In this document: positions 1 through 10,948 of the stretch, piece after piece | Layout of the letters: the number at the start of each line of letters is the position of its first letter | Numbering within the stretch: the first letter of the stretch is position 1 | Assembly: GCF_022809355.1 (NCBI RefSeq) | Contig: NZ_JAKZMM010000023.1 | Location: 1-64,000 of the forward strand | Source: Parabacteroides faecalis | Lineage (GTDB): Bacteria > Bacteroidota > Bacteroidia > Bacteroidales > Tannerellaceae | Direction of reading: 5' to 3' | Length of the DNA: 64,000 nt | Position numbers and translations under genes: made by a program | The notes under the pieces: model-generated | Told to the model about the DNA's origin: nothing | The model's input: the letters and a program-made list of their open reading frames with translations, nothing else | Databases searched by the model: none

Positions 1-705
1 TTTGCAATGCTTCTCTATCTCACTGACGATTTCCTTCGAGCAGGAACCGCAGTCTGCCCTGAAGCGATTTACACGGATGTTCTGGGATTCCAGAAGAGCG
101 AAGAATCTCTTGTGGGTCTCAGCCTGATAAAAGCGCACATTTGTGTTGCCATCGCTGTTCTCGACATAGACAATCATGTCACCGATGACATATACGCCAG
201 GTCTGTAGCCGAGGAACTTCTTGTATGTCGGTTTTGCATCATACTTCTCTGTTTCAAGGAACTGATGGTCGAAATCAACATCGTAGGTTTCCACCTCATT
301 CAGTTCACCAGTGGAAACCAAGGCTTTTATAAGCAAGGCGTTGAGCTTGTCTGCCGTATTGAAATCATAGGTCTTGCCCTTATCGGAAGTATATGAGATG
401 TTTTCCTGTGTCAGTTCCTTGATGGCTCTGAGGATGGTATCAGAGCTGCATGTGCGCAAGGTCGGATGATACGAGAGATGACGCATCAGATGCGATGTTA
501 CATCCTCCACGCATGAACCGCCACAGAAGTACACGCTCATCAGAGAACGAATAATTTCGCTGTACTGATATCCGATGATACTGCTGCATCTCTGACCAAG
601 TGTCTGGTCGATAATAGGTGAAAGCATGGAGTCAAATTGCTCCATGATTGAAAAAATTCCTCCAAAAGGTGTGAGTTTTTCAGATTTTATTTGTACCTTT
701 GCCAT
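1..705 (-). CDS. IS1380-family transposase, N-terminal part (cut by window edge)
   Basis: A minus-strand frame opens with ATG at 705-703 and stays open for 235 codons to the edge, so the C-terminal part is missing from view. The protein starts MAKVQIKSEKLTPFGG, has RSLMSVYFCGGSCVEDV at about residues 53-69, YDVDFDHQF at 141-149 (likely first catalytic Asp region) and FRADCGSCSKEIV at 215-227 (likely second Asp). This is the pattern I know from Bacteroides IS1380 transposases, DDE enzymes of roughly 430 residues that move the element by cut-and-paste. An overlapping plus-strand frame at 7-396 is its shadow. No frameshift is visible, so the transposase may be functional if the missing part is intact. 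Confidence 0.9.
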   Translation of the reverse strand, partial: MAKVQIKSEKLTPFGGIFSIMEQFDSMLSPIIDQTLGQRCSSIIGYQYSEIIRSLMSVYFCGGSCVEDVTSHLMRHLSYHPTLRTCSSDTILRAIKELTQENISYTSDKGKTYDFNTADKLNALLIKALVSTGELNEVETYDVDFDHQFLETEKYDAKPTYKKFLGYRPGVYVIGDMIVYVENSDGNTNVRFYQAETHKRFFALLESQNIRVNRFRADCGSCSKEIVSEIEKHCK

Positions 706-774
706 GTCATATTAGAGTTTTGCTTGTTTTCTTTTTGCAACACTAAGATAAGTGAAAATTCTGACATGGCAAAA

Positions 775-801
775 TCCTGAGCAACTTTTTGTTGCTCAGG
801 A
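775..801. repeat. perfect 11-bp inverted repeat inside the IS end
   Basis: TCCTGAGCAAC (775-785) and GTTGCTCAGGA (791-801) pair perfectly around a five-base TTTTT loop. It sits between the transposase start and the presumed IS terminus. It may limit read-through from the interrupted host gene into the transposase or act as a transposase recognition hairpin; the sequence alone does not decide. Confidence 0.75.
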
Positions 802-836
802 ACTTATAAATAAAGTTAAATCAAAGTGTTGCGGAA

Positions 837-2165
837 TTAAGGTCCACTATAAACAGAAAGATCATCACCCGGCGCATACCATTTATGATTCGGATCGCCT
901 TCCTTCGGAAATATATGTATCCGCTGGTAATTGAACACCTGATGCAAGATATTGACTTGTTCGTCCAATTTCATTAAATCCTTATCAAAGCGGGTCCGCT
1001 GATTCGGCATCTTTTCATAAGCCTTTTCGATATCTTCCTGAAACTTGTAAGCCCCATCCGTATTAAACACCTGCAAATAGGAACAGGCCTTTTCAGGTAA
1101 ATCAAAATGGGCGGATATCTCTTTATTCGACACACTGATTAATGGAACCCGCATCCACATATCCGGCATCGCCAATAAACTTAGCAGGAACTGGTCGGAA
1201 TTCAATTTACCAAATGTATCTTCCTTATGCAATTTTCTCAAAACTTCCGACGAGAAGGTATTCATCGGAATCATTCGTCCGTTTTCCGACTGTACAGGCA
1301 ATGCGCCAAAAGCTGCCGCATGCTTGGGACTAACCACCAATTGCTGTACAACGGAATTCAAATCCATCGTCTTTTCGTCAGCCTTCATACCAGCTGAAAA
1401 ACTCAACATACCGATCATGATCAGCGTAGAAACACCCACCGAACGCATCTTCTTCAACTGACGGCTTAAATGCATAAAACGGGAATTACGTCCCAAAATA
1501 CAAATGACCAATCCCAAAGCCAGCAGGAAATATCCTGTATAAGTAATGTTCCGGCCGATCACATCCCGGTTGACAGACAAGATCGTCCCATGCTCATCCT
1601 TATCATAAGAAGCCTGGAAGAATCTATATCCTTTAACATCCAGAACATTATTCATAAAAATCAGTTCGCGACGCGTTTCGCCATCTACATGAACCAGTAC
1701 CTCACTCTCGAAAGAAGAAGGACTTGCTGAACCCGGATACCGGGTTAAAGTAAACTTGACCAATTCTACATCAAAAGGCAGTGTATGAAAATAAGTCTTA
1801 TCTCCTGCACGGACGGCAATCTGATTGCTTGACTCGCCTTCACGCAAATGTAACAGTCCTTCTTCGCTGAATACATGCGAGCACATAGCTCCGCCCAAAA
1901 TAACGATGAAAGCCAGGTGTGTCAACAACGCGCCCCATCTCTTCCGGCTTATCAATTGATATTTCCAAGTCATGGCTACGAAATTAACAACCATCAGGAA
2001 TTGCCAGAAAATAAATATCGGGGAATAATACACCCAAACCTTTGCCGTTTCAGTTCCAAGCTGTTTTTCGATAAAAGTCGCAGCGGCCAATCCGCAAGCA
2101 TAAACAATCATCAGCAACAAACAAGTAACCGGAGAAGATAAAAACTTTAGAATATTCGATTTCAT
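837..2165 (-). pseudogene. Cytochrome c assembly protein, ResB/CcsB half of a CcsBA-type gene truncated by IS1380
   Basis: The ResB (CcsB) family works with CcsA in System II cytochrome c maturation, moving haem across the membrane for attachment to CxxCH motifs. The product has TM segments near residues 6-25, 46-65, 79-100 and 206-225, with a His in the third (LLTHLAF), a periplasmic ResB region between TM3 and TM4, another hydrophobic stretch near 243-257, then a soluble linker. It stops after DDLSVYSG with a codon supplied by the IS, before any CcsA WWD domain. In Bacteroidetes the fused protein is normally about twice this length, so I call it broken. MKSNILKF at 2165 is preferred over the upstream ATG at 2192, since TM1 follows directly. 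It is the last visible gene of the cytochrome operon, 183-210 bp after its neighbour. Confidence 0.85.
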
Positions 2166-2192: not shown

Positions 2193-2307
2193 CCCTTAAG
2201 GGAAAACATCTGACACACTAACTTTCCTTCGGCCGAAGGAAAGGTTTCCTCCGTACGGAGGAAGAGTATCCTCCGACCGGAGGAAAGTGTTCCTGCGGTC
2301 GGAGGAA
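2193..2307. repeat. four tandem palindromes at exact 22-bp spacing (array A)
   Basis: Four palindromes have centres at 2232.5, 2254.5, 2276.5 and 2298.5. The first (2222-2243) is a perfect 22-bp palindrome with arm CTTTCCTTCGG. The second (2246-2263) is perfect with arm TTCCTCCGT. The third (2269-2284) and fourth (2290-2307) are imperfect alone, but TCCTCCGACC (2269-2278) pairs perfectly with GGTCGGAGGA (2297-2306). A separate CCCTTAAGGG palindrome lies at 2193-2202. The array fills the gap between two genes of one minus-strand operon. It could be RNA hairpins that separate expression of the two genes, or a phased protein-binding array. Confidence 0.85.
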
Positions 2308-2375
2308 AGACAATTCCCAATAAGGAACGTCTTAGATATTCATTAGGGAAACATCAAAAGTTCCCCAATTTTACC

Positions 2376-5300
2376 TTAATCTTCAATAATTACACGGAAA
2401 CCAACATTGAATATCGGCTGCCAAGGATAGAATGCCTTACGACTATGAGCGGTTGAATACTTCGGACGTTCAACCCAAGAACCACCACGAACAACTTTAT
2501 ATTCGGATGTTTCTTTCGAATTCTCTTTGTAAGGATAAGAAACGTAATCAGAACGAGTCCACTCACCAACATTACCGTGCATGTTATACAAGCCGAATGG
2601 ATTTGCTTCATATTTCTTACCACCTACCTGAATCAGACTACCGTCATTTACGCTTTCTTCTTTCGGCAAGAAAGTATAATACTTATACCAGAAGCTAGTC
2701 TTCGGCATCGGCTGCGGGTCGATACCACTTACAGCCAACAAGTTGGTTGTTTCGTCAGCCATATTCTCCTTCTTTCCGAAATCAGCATTCATATCACCGT
2801 ACCAGAAGTCCTGATCGCTACCAGCACGACAAGCCCATTCCCATTGAGCTTCGGTCGGTAATGTAATATTCAAGCCAGTCTTTTCGCTCAACTGCTTACA
2901 GAATGCCATTGCATCATTATAGCTTACGCGAATTACCGGTTGATCCGGATCATTAGCCACATATCCCGGATAAACGTGGTCTTTCCACTGCTGATCCATA
3001 TGACGGCTGTCATGATCTGGGAAGAATACATTATACTGCTGGTTGGTTACTTCCAATTCACCCATCCAGAATGATTTAGCGATCTTCACTTTTGCAGTAG
3101 GACGAGCATCTGGTTCACCATGATAACTACCCATAACAAACTGACCGGCAGGGATACGAACAAAGGCCATCTTAATACCCGGCGCCAATTCGATTTCCAT
3201 ACGAGTTTGTTTCTCGTCTGCCAACATTTCCTTAATAGCATCGGCATTGAACGGCCAACCTTTAGCCTTCAGTGTCTTTTCCTTTACAGGAGCTTCCTTT
3301 TCAGGCATAACCGGAGTGATCGGGCCTTTAGCCTTCAGATAGGCAGCATAGTCGGCAATTTCCTTTTTCCAATCTACGCCTGAGCCACCGGCATACTTGT
3401 TGTTCAATTCAATACGACGTTCAATCTGGTCAAATCCCTGATAAGGAATAATATTCTTACCAAGCACGTTGGCATTGAAATAACCCTTATCCGGAGCATT
3501 ATAATCAATCCAGTTATACAAAGTTTTCCATTCAGCATCCGTCAGTTTCACATTATGGTGACCTTTCTTCAACAAGCGAACCAATTCACTTGTATTCTGA
3601 TAATATTCGTACGGGAACAATACCAGCATATCACCTTCACCACCCTGACGATGTACATACGGATGTAAGTTCAGATAAGACGGACCATAACCTAACTTAT
3701 CCTTTTCGCCGGCACGCAAGTCGAAGGCCTTACCCTGGCCATTATGGCAAGCGATACAAGCACGATCCAAGATAGGCTGGATTTCCAAATCGAATGTAAA
3801 CGAACGAACACCACCTTCCGGAGCTTTCAGTTTAGCAGCTGCTTTCTGAGAAGCGATCACACGTTTCGGAATAGCGATTTCATTCTGATCCTCATGACAA
3901 CCAACGCAAGAAACGACTTCACCCGGCTGACCAGTCAACCAACTACGCATCCACTGGATAGCGGCACCATCTTTATCAAGAGGCTGGATAGAAATAGGTG
4001 TATTGGCCGGAATCTTAAAGATAACAGAACCATCTTCTTCAACCGGAACTGTACCTAACAGACGTTTAATATCCCAACCACTCTGGATACCATGCCAGTT
4101 ATGGTCAGATTGAGTCTTCACGTATGCATATTCATAAGCATGGATACGAAGTTCCTTCACTGTACCACGCGGAACATTCTTCAAACCTTCACCTGCATAA
4201 ATATCCTGAATGAAGACAGTAGCTTCTTTATCATTCAATTTCACACGGTCCGGGATACTTGGCGGTGTAACAGACTTACGAACTGGAATCGGACTGATGA
4301 AACCTTCACCTTCTGCCTGATATACACAAGTAACGTTATCATAAATATCCACCAGATAAAGTCCCCACAAATCATTAGAAGACAACTTAGCAGATACCAA
4401 GAAATACTTATCGTTCAACGGCATCGGCTTTACAAACTGCGGCCAAACACCATTTACCAATTCATCTTTGATCAACTCCTGAACAGGACGGTTACGATGA
4501 GGTATTTCCTGAGTCATACCGGCTGCTCCTTTACGAGCTTTTGACGGATCAAATAAGATCAAACGACCAGAACGGGCAATACCATGGTGACCTGAGATAA
4601 TACCGACAAATGCAGAAGGATGACCAGGCAATGGCTGAACATCAAATGTACTGTTCGGGAACATAGAACCACTACCGAACAATGCCTTCTGTTCTGTACC
4701 ATCCGGATTCATATGCATCACAATACGAGAATAATAGTGTGTCAAGTCTGTATATTCCCAACGAGTGTACATAACTTTACCGTTAGCCATAATGGTCGGA
4801 TTCCAGTTAGCATCCTGATCGAATGTGATACGACGCATACTCTTATCCTTCGGATTATATAAAACCATATTACCAACTGGGTCATCTCCACTTACACAAG
4901 GCACACCTTGATAACCAATGTTTGAAATACCGATGATTCGTCCATCTGGCAAATAAGTACCATCATAGAATTCCAAATCAGGTTCTTTCATTTCAATCAT
5001 CGGATGATAACCGGTTCCGTCTAATTTGACTTCATGGATATTCCAACGCTTATCCGGCATTGTCTGCGTAAACATTACGCGATCTCCGTCCCAATGAAGT
5101 TTCAAGTCAGCAATAGAAGATGAATGATCCGGTTTATAAACCTGACGCATCTGAACGTCACCACGCAAATTGGTCAATTCAACAATTTCAGAATCGAAAC
5201 CTTCACGACGGGCTGATTCCTGATTACTCCAGTTATTAGCCTGTGTTCCCAAATCCGGAGCCATAGCCTGACGAGCTTTCGCTCCTAATTTGAAACGAGT

Positions 5301-6386
5301 AGCAACAATCTTATCGCCATCAAGCAAGGTATTTCCTAACAAAATAGCACGCTTGTTAGCCAATGCTTTTTTCGCATCAGCCATCACCTGCGCATCTCCT
5401 TTATAAATACCAGAAAAGCCTTTCTTGTTTAATTCAATCAATTCATTAAGCAGAGGTTCATACTTAGCGACATCATAACCTTTCTGTCTCTTCATGTCGG
5501 CAAATGCCAGCTTAACAGCCTCAACATTCAACCATTCCAATTCGTCTTGAAGAGCAGCTACCGCCTGTATCTGTTCCAGCAAAGACAGATATTTATGAAT
5601 CTGAGTATTCACATCCGATTCATTTGCAATCTGCTTAGCGGCTTCTGTAAAGTATGCCTTATCTTTCAAATGAGAAAGAGCTTTCTCAACAGCTTGTTTC
5701 TCTACTGAAGCGTCGGCTGTGATCAACCAAGTATCCAAACCGTCCAATACTGAACCCAACATGGCTATTTCTTTCGGATACTGAGCGTTCAATTCCTCTC
5801 CTACCTTGCTCGGCATAACATTCAACGCCTGGAAAAAAACGCTTCCGCCCTGAGATGTATCATCAATTCCGACTTCTGCTTCAAAACGGACATATTCGCC
5901 ATTCAGAGGATAAACCAATGTTCCATTAGCATGACAGAAAACTCCATGCTTATATTCTTTCCCAGCAATAAAGATTTCGTGATCATATGCATTGGTATTC
6001 ATTTTGGGTTTTGCCCAACCAGCAACACCATATTCATAAGGAATCTGATCCAACCAAACGGCTGTTCCATCAGCTTTGATCAAACGAGCATTTGCCCATA
6101 CAGCCTGATCATAGTCTGTTCCATCAGGACCACCCGCCGTAACCAATACAAGTTTATCTAAGCCTTTCACATCCACAGTAAATGGCTGAGCCTTCTGCTT
6201 ATGCTTCATCCACTGCGAAATAACAGGCATGCCTGCCTTCTTCAGCTTCTCTTGTAATTCGGTTTTTGCCTTAACGGATGCATCTATCCAATTATCAACT
6301 TTCTTTTGCTTCGGGCCAGCCCAAGCCAGTGTAGATGTTGATAAAAGAACAGATACTATTAGTTGATATTTGTTCATGTTATTCAA
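2376..6386 (-). CDS. HzsA-like di-haem beta-propeller protein with NPCBM and SUMF1-type domains
   Basis: A large exported protein (1336 residues, signal peptide ending near AWA, about residue 23). Domains in order: NPCBM-like carbohydrate-binding region (about 65-195), a helical region (205-365), a PD40/six-bladed propeller-like region (about 395-720), a cytochrome part with CVGCH at 827-831 and CIACH at 877-881, and a C-terminal SUMF1/FGE-sulfatase fold from about 1060 (RIPAGQFVMGS, LPTEAQWEWACRAG, MHGNVGEWT, VRGGSW). Propeller followed by two c-haems is the plan of the hydrazine synthase alpha subunit and its non-anammox relatives; that link is by architecture and memory. The Tyr I recall four residues after the first CxxCH His in true HzsA is Asn835 here, so the same chemistry should not be assumed. 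Haem attachment should need the assembly gene downstream, which is broken. The alternative start MNKYQLIV is three codons in. Confidence 0.75.
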   Translation of the reverse strand: MNNMNKYQLIVSVLLSTSTLAWAGPKQKKVDNWIDASVKAKTELQEKLKKAGMPVISQWMKHKQKAQPFTVDVKGLDKLVLVTAGGPDGTDYDQAVWANARLIKADGTAVWLDQIPYEYGVAGWAKPKMNTNAYDHEIFIAGKEYKHGVFCHANGTLVYPLNGEYVRFEAEVGIDDTSQGGSVFFQALNVMPSKVGEELNAQYPKEIAMLGSVLDGLDTWLITADASVEKQAVEKALSHLKDKAYFTEAAKQIANESDVNTQIHKYLSLLEQIQAVAALQDELEWLNVEAVKLAFADMKRQKGYDVAKYEPLLNELIELNKKGFSGIYKGDAQVMADAKKALANKRAILLGNTLLDGDKIVATRFKLGAKARQAMAPDLGTQANNWSNQESARREGFDSEIVELTNLRGDVQMRQVYKPDHSSSIADLKLHWDGDRVMFTQTMPDKRWNIHEVKLDGTGYHPMIEMKEPDLEFYDGTYLPDGRIIGISNIGYQGVPCVSGDDPVGNMVLYNPKDKSMRRITFDQDANWNPTIMANGKVMYTRWEYTDLTHYYSRIVMHMNPDGTEQKALFGSGSMFPNSTFDVQPLPGHPSAFVGIISGHHGIARSGRLILFDPSKARKGAAGMTQEIPHRNRPVQELIKDELVNGVWPQFVKPMPLNDKYFLVSAKLSSNDLWGLYLVDIYDNVTCVYQAEGEGFISPIPVRKSVTPPSIPDRVKLNDKEATVFIQDIYAGEGLKNVPRGTVKELRIHAYEYAYVKTQSDHNWHGIQSGWDIKRLLGTVPVEEDGSVIFKIPANTPISIQPLDKDGAAIQWMRSWLTGQPGEVVSCVGCHEDQNEIAIPKRVIASQKAAAKLKAPEGGVRSFTFDLEIQPILDRACIACHNGQGKAFDLRAGEKDKLGYGPSYLNLHPYVHRQGGEGDMLVLFPYEYYQNTSELVRLLKKGHHNVKLTDAEWKTLYNWIDYNAPDKGYFNANVLGKNIIPYQGFDQIERRIELNNKYAGGSGVDWKKEIADYAAYLKAKGPITPVMPEKEAPVKEKTLKAKGWPFNADAIKEMLADEKQTRMEIELAPGIKMAFVRIPAGQFVMGSYHGEPDARPTAKVKIAKSFWMGELEVTNQQYNVFFPDHDSRHMDQQWKDHVYPGYVANDPDQPVIRVSYNDAMAFCKQLSEKTGLNITLPTEAQWEWACRAGSDQDFWYGDMNADFGKKENMADETTNLLAVSGIDPQPMPKTSFWYKYYTFLPKEESVNDGSLIQVGGKKYEANPFGLYNMHGNVGEWTRSDYVSYPYKENSKETSEYKVVRGGSWVERPKYSTAHSRKAFYPWQPIFNVGFRVIIED

Positions 6387-6428
6387 TTATTCAGGTATGC
6401 AATTAATCTTACTAGAGACTAGCATAGT

Positions 6429-6470
6429 ATTTTGTTCTATACAACCACACCAGGCTGTATAGAACAAAAT
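6429..6470 (-). terminator. intercistronic hairpin, 15-bp perfect stem
   Basis: ATTTTGTTCTATACA (6429-6443) pairs with TGTATAGAACAAAAT (6456-6470) around a 12-base loop. It sits 9 bp after the cupin gene stop and 42 bp before the large haem protein start on the minus strand. There is no strong U-tract after the stem, so it may be an attenuator or an mRNA-end stabiliser within the operon rather than a full terminator. Confidence 0.6.
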
Positions 6471-6479
6471 CAAGAGAGA

Positions 6480-7196
6480 TTATAATGCGGCTTTCGTATT
6501 TGTGAAACGCAAACCATCATTATCATGGTAACAAGCCCATTCATCAACAATAGCACCTTCCGGTCCAGCCATCATGAAATGGAATGTTCCCAATTCTTTC
6601 AGACGCAATACATCACCCACTTTCTGAACAACAAAATTCTTACTCTTAATCGGACCATGAGTAGCAGGAATAGCAGGAGCATTAGGAGTTTCATCTCCAA
6701 CCTCAGAGAAATTATAAACCCAACCTTTTTCTACCATCCATGACTCATGCTTTGCAGGGAATTTTGTTTTAACGTGAGCATGTTCAGGAATCATCTGGCC
6801 TGGCAATAAATAAATGGCATGTGCAAAATAGCCATATTCCGGATCATTAACCCAGAAAATACCACCCATACCAACATTTTCGAAATCACCCAAACCAAAG
6901 TCAGTTACCCACATGTCTTTTGCCATAAGTTCTGTGAAAGGAACTCCATAAAATGCAAACATGTCTTTCATTGCTTCCATAGCAACATCTTGCTGGAATT
7001 TGCCGTCTTTATAGAAATCGGCATTTGTGTACTTCTTAGAATAAGTCATAGCTTTATTATTTTTAATATCAACTTGATTGTTCTCAGTCGTAGCATCTTG
7101 TGTCTTAGATGCGGTGTTTGCTGATTGATTAGAACATGCAACCATAGAAGATAAACCTATAGCTGTCACCATTAATTTAAAATCCATCTTTTTCAT
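6480..7196 (-). CDS. Cupin-fold lipoprotein, D-lyxose isomerase-like
   Basis: A 238-residue protein with a lipoprotein signal (SSMVAC, Cys21), so it should be membrane-anchored in the envelope. After a polar linker (22-50) the body resembles the D-lyxose isomerase cupin family: IPEHAHVKTKFPAKHESW supplies the HxH and Glu that in that family bind a divalent metal, followed by MVEKGWVYNF and a later His in LGTFHFMMAGPEGA. Known D-lyxose isomerases are cytoplasmic sugar ketol-isomerases, so an exported version in a cytochrome operon is odd; it may bind or modify a sugar substrate outside the inner membrane. The gene is 30 bp after the RidA-like gene and should share its transcript. The family is likely; the substrate is unknown. 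Confidence 0.65.
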   Translation of the reverse strand: MKKMDFKLMVTAIGLSSMVACSNQSANTASKTQDATTENNQVDIKNNKAMTYSKKYTNADFYKDGKFQQDVAMEAMKDMFAFYGVPFTELMAKDMWVTDFGLGDFENVGMGGIFWVNDPEYGYFAHAIYLLPGQMIPEHAHVKTKFPAKHESWMVEKGWVYNFSEVGDETPNAPAIPATHGPIKSKNFVVQKVGDVLRLKELGTFHFMMAGPEGAIVDEWACYHDNDGLRFTNTKAAL

Positions 7197-7226
7197 TGTA
7201 CTTATTAATTATTTGTGTTAATAATA

Positions 7227-8321
7227 TCATTTCATTGCTATTCCTTCAATCTCAATCAACAATTCTTCCCGACACACATCCGTACACATATAAGAAATAG
7301 GAATATTCAAATTATAAGCGTCCAAAAGTTGCTTTGCTTCTTCATAGAAAGAACGATCTTTCAAATAAACCCGCAACATCTTTATTTTTGCATCACCTAT
7401 TAATTCTGCAATATTTTCCATTGTAATATGCAGTTGCCGTTCCAAGCCCACGCCTATAAGCGTTTCTTCTCCACGAATAGCAGCCGTACCAGAAATATAA
7501 ATCATATTGTTATTTCCCGAAGTAAGCCGTTTGGCTCTTTCAAACTTCGGAGTAGTCTTTTGCGTACCAGCTTTTTCCAAAACTTTTTCAGAATATGCAT
7601 GGGCTGCTATTTGAAGTTTGTTGTCAATTGGTGTTGCAAAACAATCTTTTTGTTTGAAGACAACAGCATCAACATCAACAACCAAACCTCCTAAATCTGC
7701 TCCGATACCCGTCGCTGCCGGATATCCATTACTCCAGTCTGCTGGTCCGTAAAATTCACTACGGGCATTATTAAACATCTGATAACGCTGGTCTGATCCA
7801 TCGAAATCGGTTATTCTTTCGATATAATTCCACTGTCGTATTATACTATTGACCGGGAAACCTTCCTTGCGCAGCAGTTCACCCAAACATCTGAAAACAC
7901 CAGATGCTTGCTGTCGAATACCAAACATCAAAATATCTTCTTGGAAGCCACCCGCATACAAACATCTCATTTCTTTATTCTCCAAAAGAACATACGGTGT
8001 ACCTTCATAATGACGAAAGACAATAGAATCATCAGCTTCAGGCACATAACTATGTACTTCCATAATCAATGTTGCTCCTAATGGAGGTTGGGCCACATAC
8101 GTCAATGCTGGTTCCATTTGCTGATAACGATGACGGATCTTTTCACGGATCAACAGTCTCCGCTCCAAATATTGAGAATTAGACAAGGGCATTCCAAAAA
8201 ATACCAAACGCAGAACAACTTCGTTTTGAGGAATACAAGCGAGTAGTTCATCAACCGCACTATTAAAATCAGTTTGGCTTGTCTGAAATATATTATAATG
8301 TATCTTTTGACAATAATTCAT
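7227..8321 (-). CDS. RidA/YjgF-superfamily protein with FkbO/Hyg5-like architecture
   Basis: A 364-residue protein without signal peptide or TM segment, so cytoplasmic. The C-terminal part (about 235-364) reads as a RidA/YjgF fold (MIYISGTAAIRGEETLIGVG, ITMENIAELIGDAKI, MLRVYLKD), with an N-terminal domain of similar size. Two tandem RidA-like halves are the layout of chorismatases such as FkbO and Hyg5, which hydrolyse chorismate; simple RidA proteins hydrolyse reactive enamines and imines. YGPADWSNGYPAATGIGA (near residues 190-208) resembles the chorismatase core, but I cannot assign the reaction. It lies only 10 bp after the propeller/di-haem gene, implying one transcript. Confidence 0.6.
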   Translation of the reverse strand: MNYCQKIHYNIFQTSQTDFNSAVDELLACIPQNEVVLRLVFFGMPLSNSQYLERRLLIREKIRHRYQQMEPALTYVAQPPLGATLIMEVHSYVPEADDSIVFRHYEGTPYVLLENKEMRCLYAGGFQEDILMFGIRQQASGVFRCLGELLRKEGFPVNSIIRQWNYIERITDFDGSDQRYQMFNNARSEFYGPADWSNGYPAATGIGADLGGLVVDVDAVVFKQKDCFATPIDNKLQIAAHAYSEKVLEKAGTQKTTPKFERAKRLTSGNNNMIYISGTAAIRGEETLIGVGLERQLHITMENIAELIGDAKIKMLRVYLKDRSFYEEAKQLLDAYNLNIPISYMCTDVCREELLIEIEGIAMK

Positions 8322-8331
8322 AGTCCTAACT

Positions 8332-10107
8332 TTATAATGAATTCACATACTCAGTCAGTTCCTCAATCTCCTTATCAGAAACTTTCTTATCAATACCATG
8401 CTTATAAACACGGAACACATCTTCCATGGTTGCCGCTGCTCCATTAAATAAATAAGGAGCTGTTCGCCAAACTTCACGTAATGTAGGTGTATCCCAACCT
8501 TGTTCAAATTCCACATTCTCTCCTATGATATGATATTTCATATCTGTAAAGTTTGGACCACTATGGCATTCTCCACATTTCAACTTTTCAAATACCTTAC
8601 GGCCAGCTTCAGCCTTCTCACTTAACTTACCATCTACCAAATATGGACTAGGAACAGGTTGTAGAGATTTCAAATATGCATCTACGCAAACTGCCATATC
8701 TTCTTCTGGTTCGTAAAACTGAATATAACGAAAGCCTGCTCGAACAGCAAGTTCTGCACTTTCACGAATACCAGATATCATACATGGTGGTGTTACATGA
8801 CTAAACAAAAGGCTCTTGCAATTCTTCGAATTACCGATACCATCATTCATTAAATCCCAATTCATACCATCTGTTCTTGCATCTCCAGGATGACAACCAT
8901 TACAACTCTGCCAATTCTGGAAGCAATGAGCAGCATCGTTAAAATATCTCTCCCCCTTCTGTTCAACCGTTTCTGTCCGATCCGGATTTAAAGGCACAGA
9001 AGTCAAATCTAAAGATTCCTTGTCTAGCACATTCAGTACGTCTGCGAAATAAGTTGGAATGACAACTTTATTTTCATTTGTGACCATACAACGAGGGCCA
9101 TTGCCTTGTAAAGGAATTCTTGTTCGCAAACCGTATAAGAACGTCAGATCATAGTCCAAACGGGATTTATCAGGATATGCCTCAAATTTTTCACGCATAG
9201 CTTCATGATCAATTACACTGACTTCATGCGTTCCACTATGTGTTATATAAATTTGTTTTTCATCACAAGCAATACTCCAAATACCTGCAGCTCCACGATC
9301 AGGCTCATCTACGATAACAACACCTGCATAACTTAAATTCTCCGCATCAATAATACTAAATGCACTTGTATTCATCCAACCTTGTTGAAGCTGTGAGGTA
9401 GGAACAGTAAAACGACCTAAATTATGAGATACATATACATATTTCCCATCAGGCGTAATACATAAACCTCGCAAAGCATTACTTCCATTTGCCAATTGGA
9501 TATCTTTTACTTTTTCAAAAGTATTTACATCAATCACAGACACACAAGCTGCCACATAATCAAGATCAGCCCGCTGTGCCGGCAAAAAGTTTGTAACAAA
9601 CAAATATTTTCCATCTTTACTGAAAACAGCAGACCGAGGCTCACGCAGTACATTCACTGTACGAACAATCTTTCCACTAGCTAAATCAATTTCTACAACA
9701 TTATTAGAAAACTGATTACATATATAAATATGCTTTCCATCAGGTCCTAATAAAGGATAACAAGCCCCAGAACCAGTAGGAATTATTTTCTCTACTTTTC
9801 CCGTCTCCATTTGCATGATCTGCAAATGACCCATAGTTTCAAAAGTTGTCACATAGGCTTTTCCTTCATGTAACAAAATACCTGTGGGCGTTTCATCGAC
9901 AGGATAAGAATGTAAAAGTTTTTTACCATCAGCTGAAAAAATATCCACACACTTCTTTCCTTTTTCAGCCAGCCACATTTCTCCGTTTTGACTTATATCT
10001 ATCCCTGTTGTAAAAAAAGGTTTCGTGTCAGCTTTAACCCACGAAAAACAACAACAAGCTAAGCCAGTCAATAATAATTTCCCAAATAAACTTTCCAGTA
10101 TCTTCAT
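8332..10107 (-). CDS. YncE-like beta-propeller fused to a MauG/cytochrome c peroxidase-like di-haem domain
   Basis: An exported protein of 591 residues with a hydrophobic signal (LFGKLLLTGLACCCFSW; VKAD could precede cleavage). Residues about 30-375 are a seven-bladed YncE/WD40-type propeller with repeated blades such as SPDGKYVYVSHN-like turns. The rest is a di-haem domain with CNGCH at 402-406 and CGECH at 511-515, and the TPTLREVWRTAPYLFNG stretch typical of MauG and bacterial cytochrome c peroxidases. In hydrazine synthase the beta subunit is such a propeller and the gamma subunit such a di-haem protein; I recall that some anammox lineages fuse them. Here it is co-transcribed with the HzsA-like protein. 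Electron transfer in the periplasm is the safe part of the call. Confidence 0.75.
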   Translation of the reverse strand: MKILESLFGKLLLTGLACCCFSWVKADTKPFFTTGIDISQNGEMWLAEKGKKCVDIFSADGKKLLHSYPVDETPTGILLHEGKAYVTTFETMGHLQIMQMETGKVEKIIPTGSGACYPLLGPDGKHIYICNQFSNNVVEIDLASGKIVRTVNVLREPRSAVFSKDGKYLFVTNFLPAQRADLDYVAACVSVIDVNTFEKVKDIQLANGSNALRGLCITPDGKYVYVSHNLGRFTVPTSQLQQGWMNTSAFSIIDAENLSYAGVVIVDEPDRGAAGIWSIACDEKQIYITHSGTHEVSVIDHEAMREKFEAYPDKSRLDYDLTFLYGLRTRIPLQGNGPRCMVTNENKVVIPTYFADVLNVLDKESLDLTSVPLNPDRTETVEQKGERYFNDAAHCFQNWQSCNGCHPGDARTDGMNWDLMNDGIGNSKNCKSLLFSHVTPPCMISGIRESAELAVRAGFRYIQFYEPEEDMAVCVDAYLKSLQPVPSPYLVDGKLSEKAEAGRKVFEKLKCGECHSGPNFTDMKYHIIGENVEFEQGWDTPTLREVWRTAPYLFNGAAATMEDVFRVYKHGIDKKVSDKEIEELTEYVNSL

Positions 10108-10138
10108 GGTTCGCTATTTTTATGGTAACATACATTTA

Positions 10139-10948
10139 TCAATCTTTCAACATCGGGCTATATCCTAGTTCCGCAGATATTATTTTCGCATACTTTCGGA
10201 TCATCTGAGCAGATTCTTCGACTACTGAATCCGATAATCGATCTTTAGGTCCAGAAATCCAAATAGCCCCACATGGATAACCAGTATAATTTAAAATAAC
10301 TGAGCCGATACATATAACACCACTCATTTCTTCTTCATTATCCAAAGCATATCCATTTTCTCTTACTTTTTCCAGCTCTTTCAAATATGTGTCACGATCC
10401 GTTATCGTATTTGCATTAAAACGCTGGAACTGCATATACGATAAATATCTATCACGAACGGTATTAGGCAAATAAGCCATAATAGCTTTCCCTGGAGCTG
10501 AGCAATGGAGTTCAAAAGGTTTACCCGGAGCTAATACAAAATGAAAAGCATGAAGTCCCTGAGCTTGCTCAATAAAAATACCTTTTTCATTTCCCAAAAC
10601 TCCAAAACAAACAGTTTCTTTTAATATATCACGCAAATCACGTAACTTCGGCAATACGATTTCCAATAAATTATGTTCCTTCAAAGAACAAAACCCCAAT
10701 GTTAATAACTTTCGTGTAATCTGATACCGTTTCGTTTTATCTTCGAAATATAAATATTCCAATCGGACCAACGTATTTAGTATACGATATGCTGTCGTCT
10801 GGGAAATATCCAACGCCTGTTTAATTTCTTGCAAAGTTCGTCCTTCTGAATTATAGGAAAGATATTCTAAAACAGCTATTCCCTTTTCCAAGTTAGGAAC
10901 TTTATAATTCTCATCCGTTTTTTCCACATTTGACATCTGTGTTTCCAT
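10139..10948 (-). CDS. IclR-family transcriptional regulator
   Basis: A 269-residue regulator with an N-terminal winged helix-turn-helix (about 18-80; RTLQEIKQALDISQTTAYRI) and a C-terminal IclR effector domain (about 95-255; CSAPGKAIMAYLP, GYALDNEEEMSGVICIG, GPKDRLS). The family usually senses a small organic acid or aromatic and controls an adjacent catabolic operon. It leads the cytochrome operon on the same strand, with 31 bp before the propeller/di-haem gene, so it probably regulates itself and the whole set. Candidate operators overlap its own promoter. Start METQMSNVEK is placed by the promoter just upstream. Confidence 0.9.
   Translation of the reverse strand: METQMSNVEKTDENYKVPNLEKGIAVLEYLSYNSEGRTLQEIKQALDISQTTAYRILNTLVRLEYLYFEDKTKRYQITRKLLTLGFCSLKEHNLLEIVLPKLRDLRDILKETVCFGVLGNEKGIFIEQAQGLHAFHFVLAPGKPFELHCSAPGKAIMAYLPNTVRDRYLSYMQFQRFNANTITDRDTYLKELEKVRENGYALDNEEEMSGVICIGSVILNYTGYPCGAIWISGPKDRLSDSVVEESAQMIRKYAKIISAELGYSPMLKD

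What the first reader, a model, noticed from the sequence alone, without database searches (positions are those of the whole stretch)
1..2165. IS1380 insertion cuts the cytochrome c assembly gene of the same operon
The ResB/CcsB half ends in a stop codon supplied by the IS, before any CcsA domain. The four CxxCH motifs upstream need a haem-attachment system, so this strain may make apo-cytochromes unless a second System II exists. It suggests recent loss of the pathway or selection against it.
Basis: partly seen in the sequence, partly recalled or inferred. Interest (0 to 1): 0.7.

Follow-up and report, generated by a model that had tools for sequence, protein, structure and literature searches.

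The report
Insertion sequence splits only cytochrome-c synthase
In this gut bacterium (genus Parabacteroides) a jumping DNA element has landed, apparently recently, inside the only gene found for attaching haem to c-type cytochromes, so five haem-protein genes found here probably yield no finished product, or at best a trickle made by the two separated halves of the enzyme.

Summary
An IS612-like element (IS1380 family) ends at window base 842 inside a fused ccsBA gene; its terminal CCTTAA supplies the stop after 450 native residues. The opposite IS end, a matching 5-bp target duplication (GTGGA) and the intact CcsA remainder lie at the end of contig C26 of the same genome. Removing the IS and one duplication restores an 828-aa frame, like the ccsBA found uninterrupted in 36 of 39 congeneric genomes. 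No second System II or CcmF/CcmC-type gene was found: the only ResB and only CcsA matches are these two halves. Besides the two di-haem proteins of the operon, the genome carries three more CxxCH proteins that would depend on it. Most likely a recent, IS-burst-driven loss of cytochrome c maturation. "Selection against the pathway" has no support: six other of about 20 IS insertions also appear to fall in open frames. The main rival is residual function: the cut leaves all ResB and all CcsA membrane segments, and engineered split CcsBA from Helicobacter keeps 15–60% activity (PMC6299221). Expression of the CcsA half is unproven. An ordinary kind of event with a clear testable consequence.

The parts
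1..842 (-). 5' half (842 of about 1597 bp) of an IS612-like IS1380-family element; the contig ends inside it
   Evidence: 91% identity over 842 bp to IS612/IS612B copies on Bacteroides plasmids; same terminal sequence at 19 other sites in the genome
1..705 (-). N-terminal 235 codons of the IS1380-family transposase, same orientation as the operon
   Evidence: NF033539 transpos_IS1380, 167 bits (below its whole-protein cut-off of 180 because truncated)
826..842 (-). terminal inverted repeat CCTTAATTCCGCAACAC; supplies Pro-stop (CCT TAA) to the ccsB frame
   Evidence: partner repeat CCTAAAATCCGCAAC on contig C26
775..801 (-). perfect 11-bp hairpin between IS end and transposase start, a likely barrier to read-in from the operon
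   Evidence: fold z = -6.5, no shuffle as stable; function inferred
843..847 (-). target-site duplication GTGGA (operon strand); second copy at C26:59720-59724
   Evidence: unique 5-bp match among 24 opposite-end flanks; all but one of the other right ends also find a 5-bp partner
837..2165 (-). ccsB half of fused ccsBA: 441 native residues from the relatives' start codon (450 from the upstream ATG at 2192), then Pro-stop from the IS
   Evidence: Pfam ResB 80 bits; frame and homology run to residue 450 in relatives; rest of the gene (CcsA) at C26:58583-59710
2376..6386 (-). HZS-alpha-like protein (NPCBM, HZS_alpha middle domain, FGE-sulfatase), CVGCH and CIACH haem motifs
6480..7196 (-). conserved 238-aa putative lipoprotein of the operon
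   Evidence: conserved in relatives at 63-80% identity; lipoprotein call from the N-terminal sequence only
7227..8321 (-). FkbO/Hyg5-chorismatase-like protein with RidA-like C-terminal domain
   Evidence: below the NCBIfam cut-off
8332..10107 (-). beta-propeller plus di-haem protein resembling a fused HZS beta-gamma subunit, CNGCH and CGECH motifs
   Evidence: 94.7 bits versus cut-off 1250: relative, not an HZS
10139..10948 (-). IclR-type regulator at the head of the operon
   Evidence: conserved position in relatives; IclR assignment from sequence reading, not tested against a family library

Best explanation
An IS612-like element (IS1380 family) transposed recently into codon 450/451 of the single fused ccsBA gene (System II cytochrome c synthase) of a Parabacteroides genome, duplicating GTGGA. 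SHOWN: the insertion, target duplication, IS-supplied stop, intact remainder on C26, absence of another ResB/CcsA/CcmF/CcmC-type gene, and at least five CxxCH proteins in the genome. INFERRED: the ccsB half ends in periplasmic domain 2. The CcsA half, which carries P-His1, WWD, TM-His2 and P-His2, is cut off from operon transcription and translation by 1.6 kb of IS, with a hairpin at the entry and an in-frame stop at the exit. Covalent haem attachment is therefore lost or strongly reduced, and the cytochromes stay as apo-proteins and are probably degraded. The cause is most simply a burst of this IS rather than selection on the pathway.
For: Matching IS ends and unique TSD. Empty-site join gives an uninterrupted 828-aa frame, 61-72% identical over its length to Tannerellaceae relatives. 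ccsBA is one near-full-length match in 36 of 39 genus genomes; the exceptions are this one, one fragment and one incomplete genome without it. Only one ResB match and one Cytochrom_C_asm match, the two halves; the latter family also covers CcmF/CcmC, as E. coli in the control shows. No intact junction elsewhere. IS burst: 20 ends of one kind and 24 of the other, nearly all at contig ends, the latter 98-100% identical; six other insertions also appear to interrupt open frames of 88 or more codons on both sides. Recent: no frameshift in either half, and only 3 departures from 276 otherwise invariant residues, as in intact relatives (0-8). Dependent proteins: window 2376-6386 and 8332-10107, plus C54 (3 CxxCH), C47 (2) and C31 (2).
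Against: Loss of function is not measured. Both halves keep their membrane segments and catalytic residues, and split CcsBA can work (PMC6299221). The IS lies in the sense direction, so transposase read-through could transcribe the ccsA half. No terminator was recognised at the 3' end of IS612 (z = 0.8), and TTG/ATG starts exist just after the IS. About 0.64 kb of the middle of the IS is not in the assembly, and a minority intact allele in the sampled population cannot be seen.
Confidence: 0.72

Rival explanations
1. Gene fission with residual function: the IS turned a fused CcsBA into two polypeptides (CcsB ending in periplasmic domain 2, and CcsA restarted at TTG codon 5 or ATG codon 36 after the IS), co-expressed by transposase read-through, which still form a working though weaker synthase.
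For: All ResB membrane segments with TM-His1 (H92) are in the first half; P-His1 (H646), WWD, TM-His2 (H744) and P-His2 (H783) are in the second (assignment by alignment to 7s9y). The cut is in periplasmic domain 2, near a length-variable place in the alignment with 7s9y. H. hepaticus CcsBA split by a stop/start cassette at residue 368 or 659 matures cytochrome c at about 15% or 60% (PMC6299221). Unfused natural complexes have smaller periplasmic regions (PMC10663686). An AAAGGA sequence lies four bases before the TTG.
Against: No designed start, in-frame TAG at the IS exit, only non-ATG starts near the junction, and an 11-bp hairpin at IS entry. No promoter match of the Bacteroides type (TANNTTTG) near either end. 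The IS612B end next to nimE points the other way, which here is antisense to ccsB. The sequence around the cut is well conserved in the family (mean 0.82).
Confidence: 0.18
2. Adaptive loss: the pathway is selected against and the IS insertion was favoured.
For: Only one genome of 39 shows the break, so a strain-specific change is possible; the outward end of the IS faces the operon in antisense and could also lower its expression (inference).
Against: The IS is in burst and also interrupts other open frames; cytochrome genes upstream are undamaged; ccsBA is kept in nearly every congeneric genome.
Confidence: 0.05
3. Assembly or population artefact: most cells carry the intact gene and the assembler kept a minority IS-bearing variant.
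For: 104-contig draft; contigs break at copies of this IS; the read data are not available.
Against: Both junctions are assembled with a proper 5-bp duplication, and the empty junction is absent from the assembly at up to 2 mismatches; genome 99.98% complete, 0.18% contaminated.
Confidence: 0.05

Closest known systems
IS612 (IS1380 family; known upstream of cfiA and nim genes in Bacteroides)
   Same: Terminal 111 bp on C26 identical to IS612 of CP103159.1; 842 bp at 91%; length about 1597 bp in that copy; 5-bp duplications in this genome
   Different: 91% rather than near-identity in the half held by C23, so perhaps a separate isoform; here it interrupts a gene rather than activating one
Fused CcsBA of Bacteroidota and Campylobacterota (structures 7s9y/7s9z H. 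hepaticus; 25vk)
   Same: Same domain order, histidines and WWD loop; aligned over residues 14-814 with 25vk_A
   Different: Interrupted in periplasmic domain 2; the two halves are separate frames
Engineered split CcsB*A (H. hepaticus stop/start cassettes at aa 368 and aa 659; PMC6299221)
   Same: Separate CcsB and CcsA polypeptides from a formerly fused gene
   Different: The engineered version has a designed stop/ribosome site/start; here 1.6 kb of IS lies between the halves

Membership tests
IS1380 family / IS612 | IS1380-type transposase | tested here: met
   NF033539 match over 230 N-terminal positions; truncated by the contig end, so under the whole-protein cut-off
IS1380 family / IS612 | terminal inverted repeats of the IS612 type | tested here: met
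   CCTTAATTCCGCAAC / CCTAAAATCCGCAAC at the two ends, as in L085
IS1380 family / IS612 | short target duplication | tested here: met
   5 bp, GTGGA; all but one of the right ends pair at 5 bp with an opposite end, and none at 6 bp
IS1380 family / IS612 | complete transposase in this copy | tested here: inconclusive
   Middle about 0.64 kb of the element is not in the assembly
System II synthase CcsBA | ResB domain with TM-His1 | tested here: met
   Pfam ResB 80 bits; H92 in 36 of the 36 aligned rows with a residue there
System II synthase CcsBA | CcsA domain with WWD loop, P-His1, TM-His2, P-His2 | tested here: met
   On C26: Cytochrom_C_asm 130 bits; H646, H744, H783 in 37 of 37 rows
System II synthase CcsBA | one uninterrupted reading frame (fused form) | tested here: not met
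   Broken by the IS at residue 450; so this is a disrupted ccsBA, not a working fused member as it stands
System II synthase CcsBA | attaches haem to CxxCH | not testable with these tools
   needs haem stain or spectra
Hydrazine synthase (operon proteins) | equivalog-level match to HZS subunits | tested here: not met
   40 and 95 bits against cut-offs of 800 and 1250: distant relatives only

The most novel reading that the evidence does not exclude
An insertion sequence has converted a fused cytochrome c synthase into a working two-polypeptide System II in nature: a gene-fission step caught in progress, with CcsA expressed from IS-derived transcription.
Probability: 0.13. Interest if true: 0.6.

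Novelty: new member of a known kind. Interest (0 to 1): 0.33.

Why it matters
IS disruption of genes is common, but here it hits the only haem-attachment enzyme found for c-type cytochromes in the genome. The strain is therefore a natural knock-out candidate. It would allow the role of the conserved, uncharacterised HZS-like cytochrome operon of Tannerellaceae, and of c-type cytochromes in Parabacteroides generally, to be tested by comparing strains. It also offers a natural test of whether a split CcsBA can work outside engineered constructs.

Tried and rejected
NrfA and the Cytochrome_CBB3 family gave no genome-level hit; the genomic scan misses weak single CxxCH domains, so the cytochrome list is a minimum. 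A Bacteroides-type promoter (TANNTTTG) near the IS ends: none found. Terminator at the IS 3' end: no support (z = 0.8). 'Natural end of the gene' in relatives: rejected; only L028, a metagenome-derived draft, stops near the same place, by in-frame TGA codons inside an otherwise continuous match, with its neighbouring HZS-like gene also broken. Strain-level comparison within the species was not possible (one genome per species; metagenome scans not available). Kato 2003 on IS612-type promoters was not in the library. No structure prediction was run: solved CcsBA structures already place the cut, and a fold would not settle expression.

Full report
CHECK OF THE OBSERVATION. The window is contig C23:1-64000 of a 4.31-Mb, 104-contig genome, 99.98% complete. 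Its first 842 bases are one end of an IS1380-family element. The transposase frame (1-705, minus strand, open at the contig end) matches NCBIfam transpos_IS1380 over model positions 1-230, and the DNA is 91% identical to IS612 and IS612B copies on Bacteroides plasmids. The same terminal sequence, ending ...GTTGCGGAATTAAGG, is followed by different DNA at 19 other places in the genome, nearly all at contig ends, which fixes the IS boundary at base 842. The minus-strand frame 837-2192 matches only Pfam ResB. Its last codons are AGT GGA from the gene and CCT TAA from the IS.

THE MISSING HALF. The only Cytochrom_C_asm (CcsA) match in the genome is at the very end of contig C26, in a 375-aa frame at C26:58583-59710. 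The last 111 bases of C26 are identical to the opposite end of IS612 of B. fragilis plasmid CP103159.1 and recur at 23 other contig ends. Between IS and gene stands GTGGA, the same five bases that flank the IS on C23. Among 24 opposite-end flanks only C26 carries it, and all but one of the other right ends also find a 5-bp, never a 6-bp, partner. Joining the two flanks with one GTGGA gives an uninterrupted 828-aa frame. The empty junction is not present anywhere in the assembly at up to two mismatches.

RELATIVES. In the genus, 38 of 39 genomes have a match. Thirty-six hold ccsBA as one near-full-length match; the others are this genome, one fragment, and one incomplete genome without a match. 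Named loci from Parabacteroides gordonii, goldsteinii, faecis, massiliensis and others show the same operon order: IclR-type regulator, propeller/di-haem protein, chorismatase-like protein, putative lipoprotein, HZS-alpha-like di-haem protein, ccsBA. So the gene does not naturally end here. The one look-alike, L028, has in-frame TGA codons in a metagenome draft whose neighbouring gene is also broken.

IS THERE A BACKUP? ResB and Cytochrom_C_asm each hit the genome once, the two halves of this gene. Cytochrom_C_asm also covers CcmF and CcmC (E. coli rings in the control), so System I proteins of that kind are absent too. Several relatives have a second, more distant CcsA match of about 33-36% identity; this genome does not, and it has no NrfA. 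Other c-type cytochrome candidates exist: a CCP/MauG-type protein on C54 with three CxxCH, and two HZS-alpha-like proteins on C47 and C31 with two each. With the two in the operon, that makes five proteins and eleven motifs with no intact synthase.

WHY IT HAPPENED. Copies of this IS sit at about 20 or more sites; the opposite ends found are 98-100% identical. Seven of the insertions that can be paired, this one included, leave open frames of 88 or more codons on both sides in register. A burst with many coding hits explains the event without selection on the pathway. The ccsBA halves carry no other damage: 3 departures from 276 otherwise invariant positions, against 0-8 in intact relatives. 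This fits a recent event, and would also fit a gene still in use.

HOW MUCH FUNCTION IS LEFT. The cut at residue 450/451 lies between the last ResB and first CcsA membrane segments, in periplasmic domain 2 by alignment to H. hepaticus CcsBA 7s9y. The four catalytic histidines (H92; H646, H744, H783) and the WWD loop are all present, one in the first half and the rest in the second. Engineered H. hepaticus CcsBA split at residue 368 or 659 still gave about 15% or 60% of cytochrome c maturation (PMC6299221), and unfused natural complexes have smaller periplasmic regions (PMC10663686). So splitting as such need not be fatal. What makes loss more likely is expression. The operon transcript meets an 11-bp hairpin 41 bases inside the IS (z = -6.5) and a 1.6-kb element. 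The frame exits through an in-frame TAG, and only TTG codons, then ATG at codon 36, follow. The IS612B end next to nimE on pBFQ11c points antisense to ccsB here. Against this, the transposase runs in the sense direction and no terminator was recognised at its 3' end, so read-through is possible.

VERDICT. A real, recent IS612-like disruption of the sole ccsBA found, most likely abolishing or strongly reducing cytochrome c maturation. The kind of event is ordinary; the target and the absence of a backup make it worth a simple haem-stain test.

Noticed in passing
window 2376-10948: Operon conserved in Tannerellaceae: IclR-type regulator, fused HZS beta-gamma-like propeller/di-haem protein, FkbO/Hyg5-like chorismatase relative with a RidA-like domain, putative lipoprotein, HZS-alpha/NPCBM/FGE di-haem protein, then ccsBA. 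A 2025 study (PMC12758564) describes co-located HZS alpha and beta-gamma homologues outside anammox bacteria and Bacteroidota beta-gamma homologues; the passages read do not describe this operon. Function unknown.
   Followed up: partly
G000 contigs C47 (L089:1515-3890) and C31 (L090:464-3793): Two further HZS-alpha-like CxxCH proteins in the same genome; larger Parabacteroides genomes carry up to eight such genes.
   Followed up: partly
20 IS ends of one kind and 24 of the other across the assembly (L001-L020, L046-L069): Burst of an IS612-like element; nearly every right end can be paired with a left end by its 5-bp duplication, which would allow contigs to be ordered.
   Followed up: partly
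L028 3440-5848 and L041 9220-11624: ccsBA (and the HZS-like neighbour) in two metagenome drafts named BH.* carries in-frame TGA codons (L028) or a frame break (L041); decay, sequencing error or DNA damage not distinguished.
   Followed up: partly
window 2219-2312: Repeated GGAGGAAA/TTCCTCCG palindromic units between ccsBA and the HZS-alpha-like gene, seen while reading the sequence; one scores as a terminator-like hairpin (2263-2246, minus strand).
   Followed up: no
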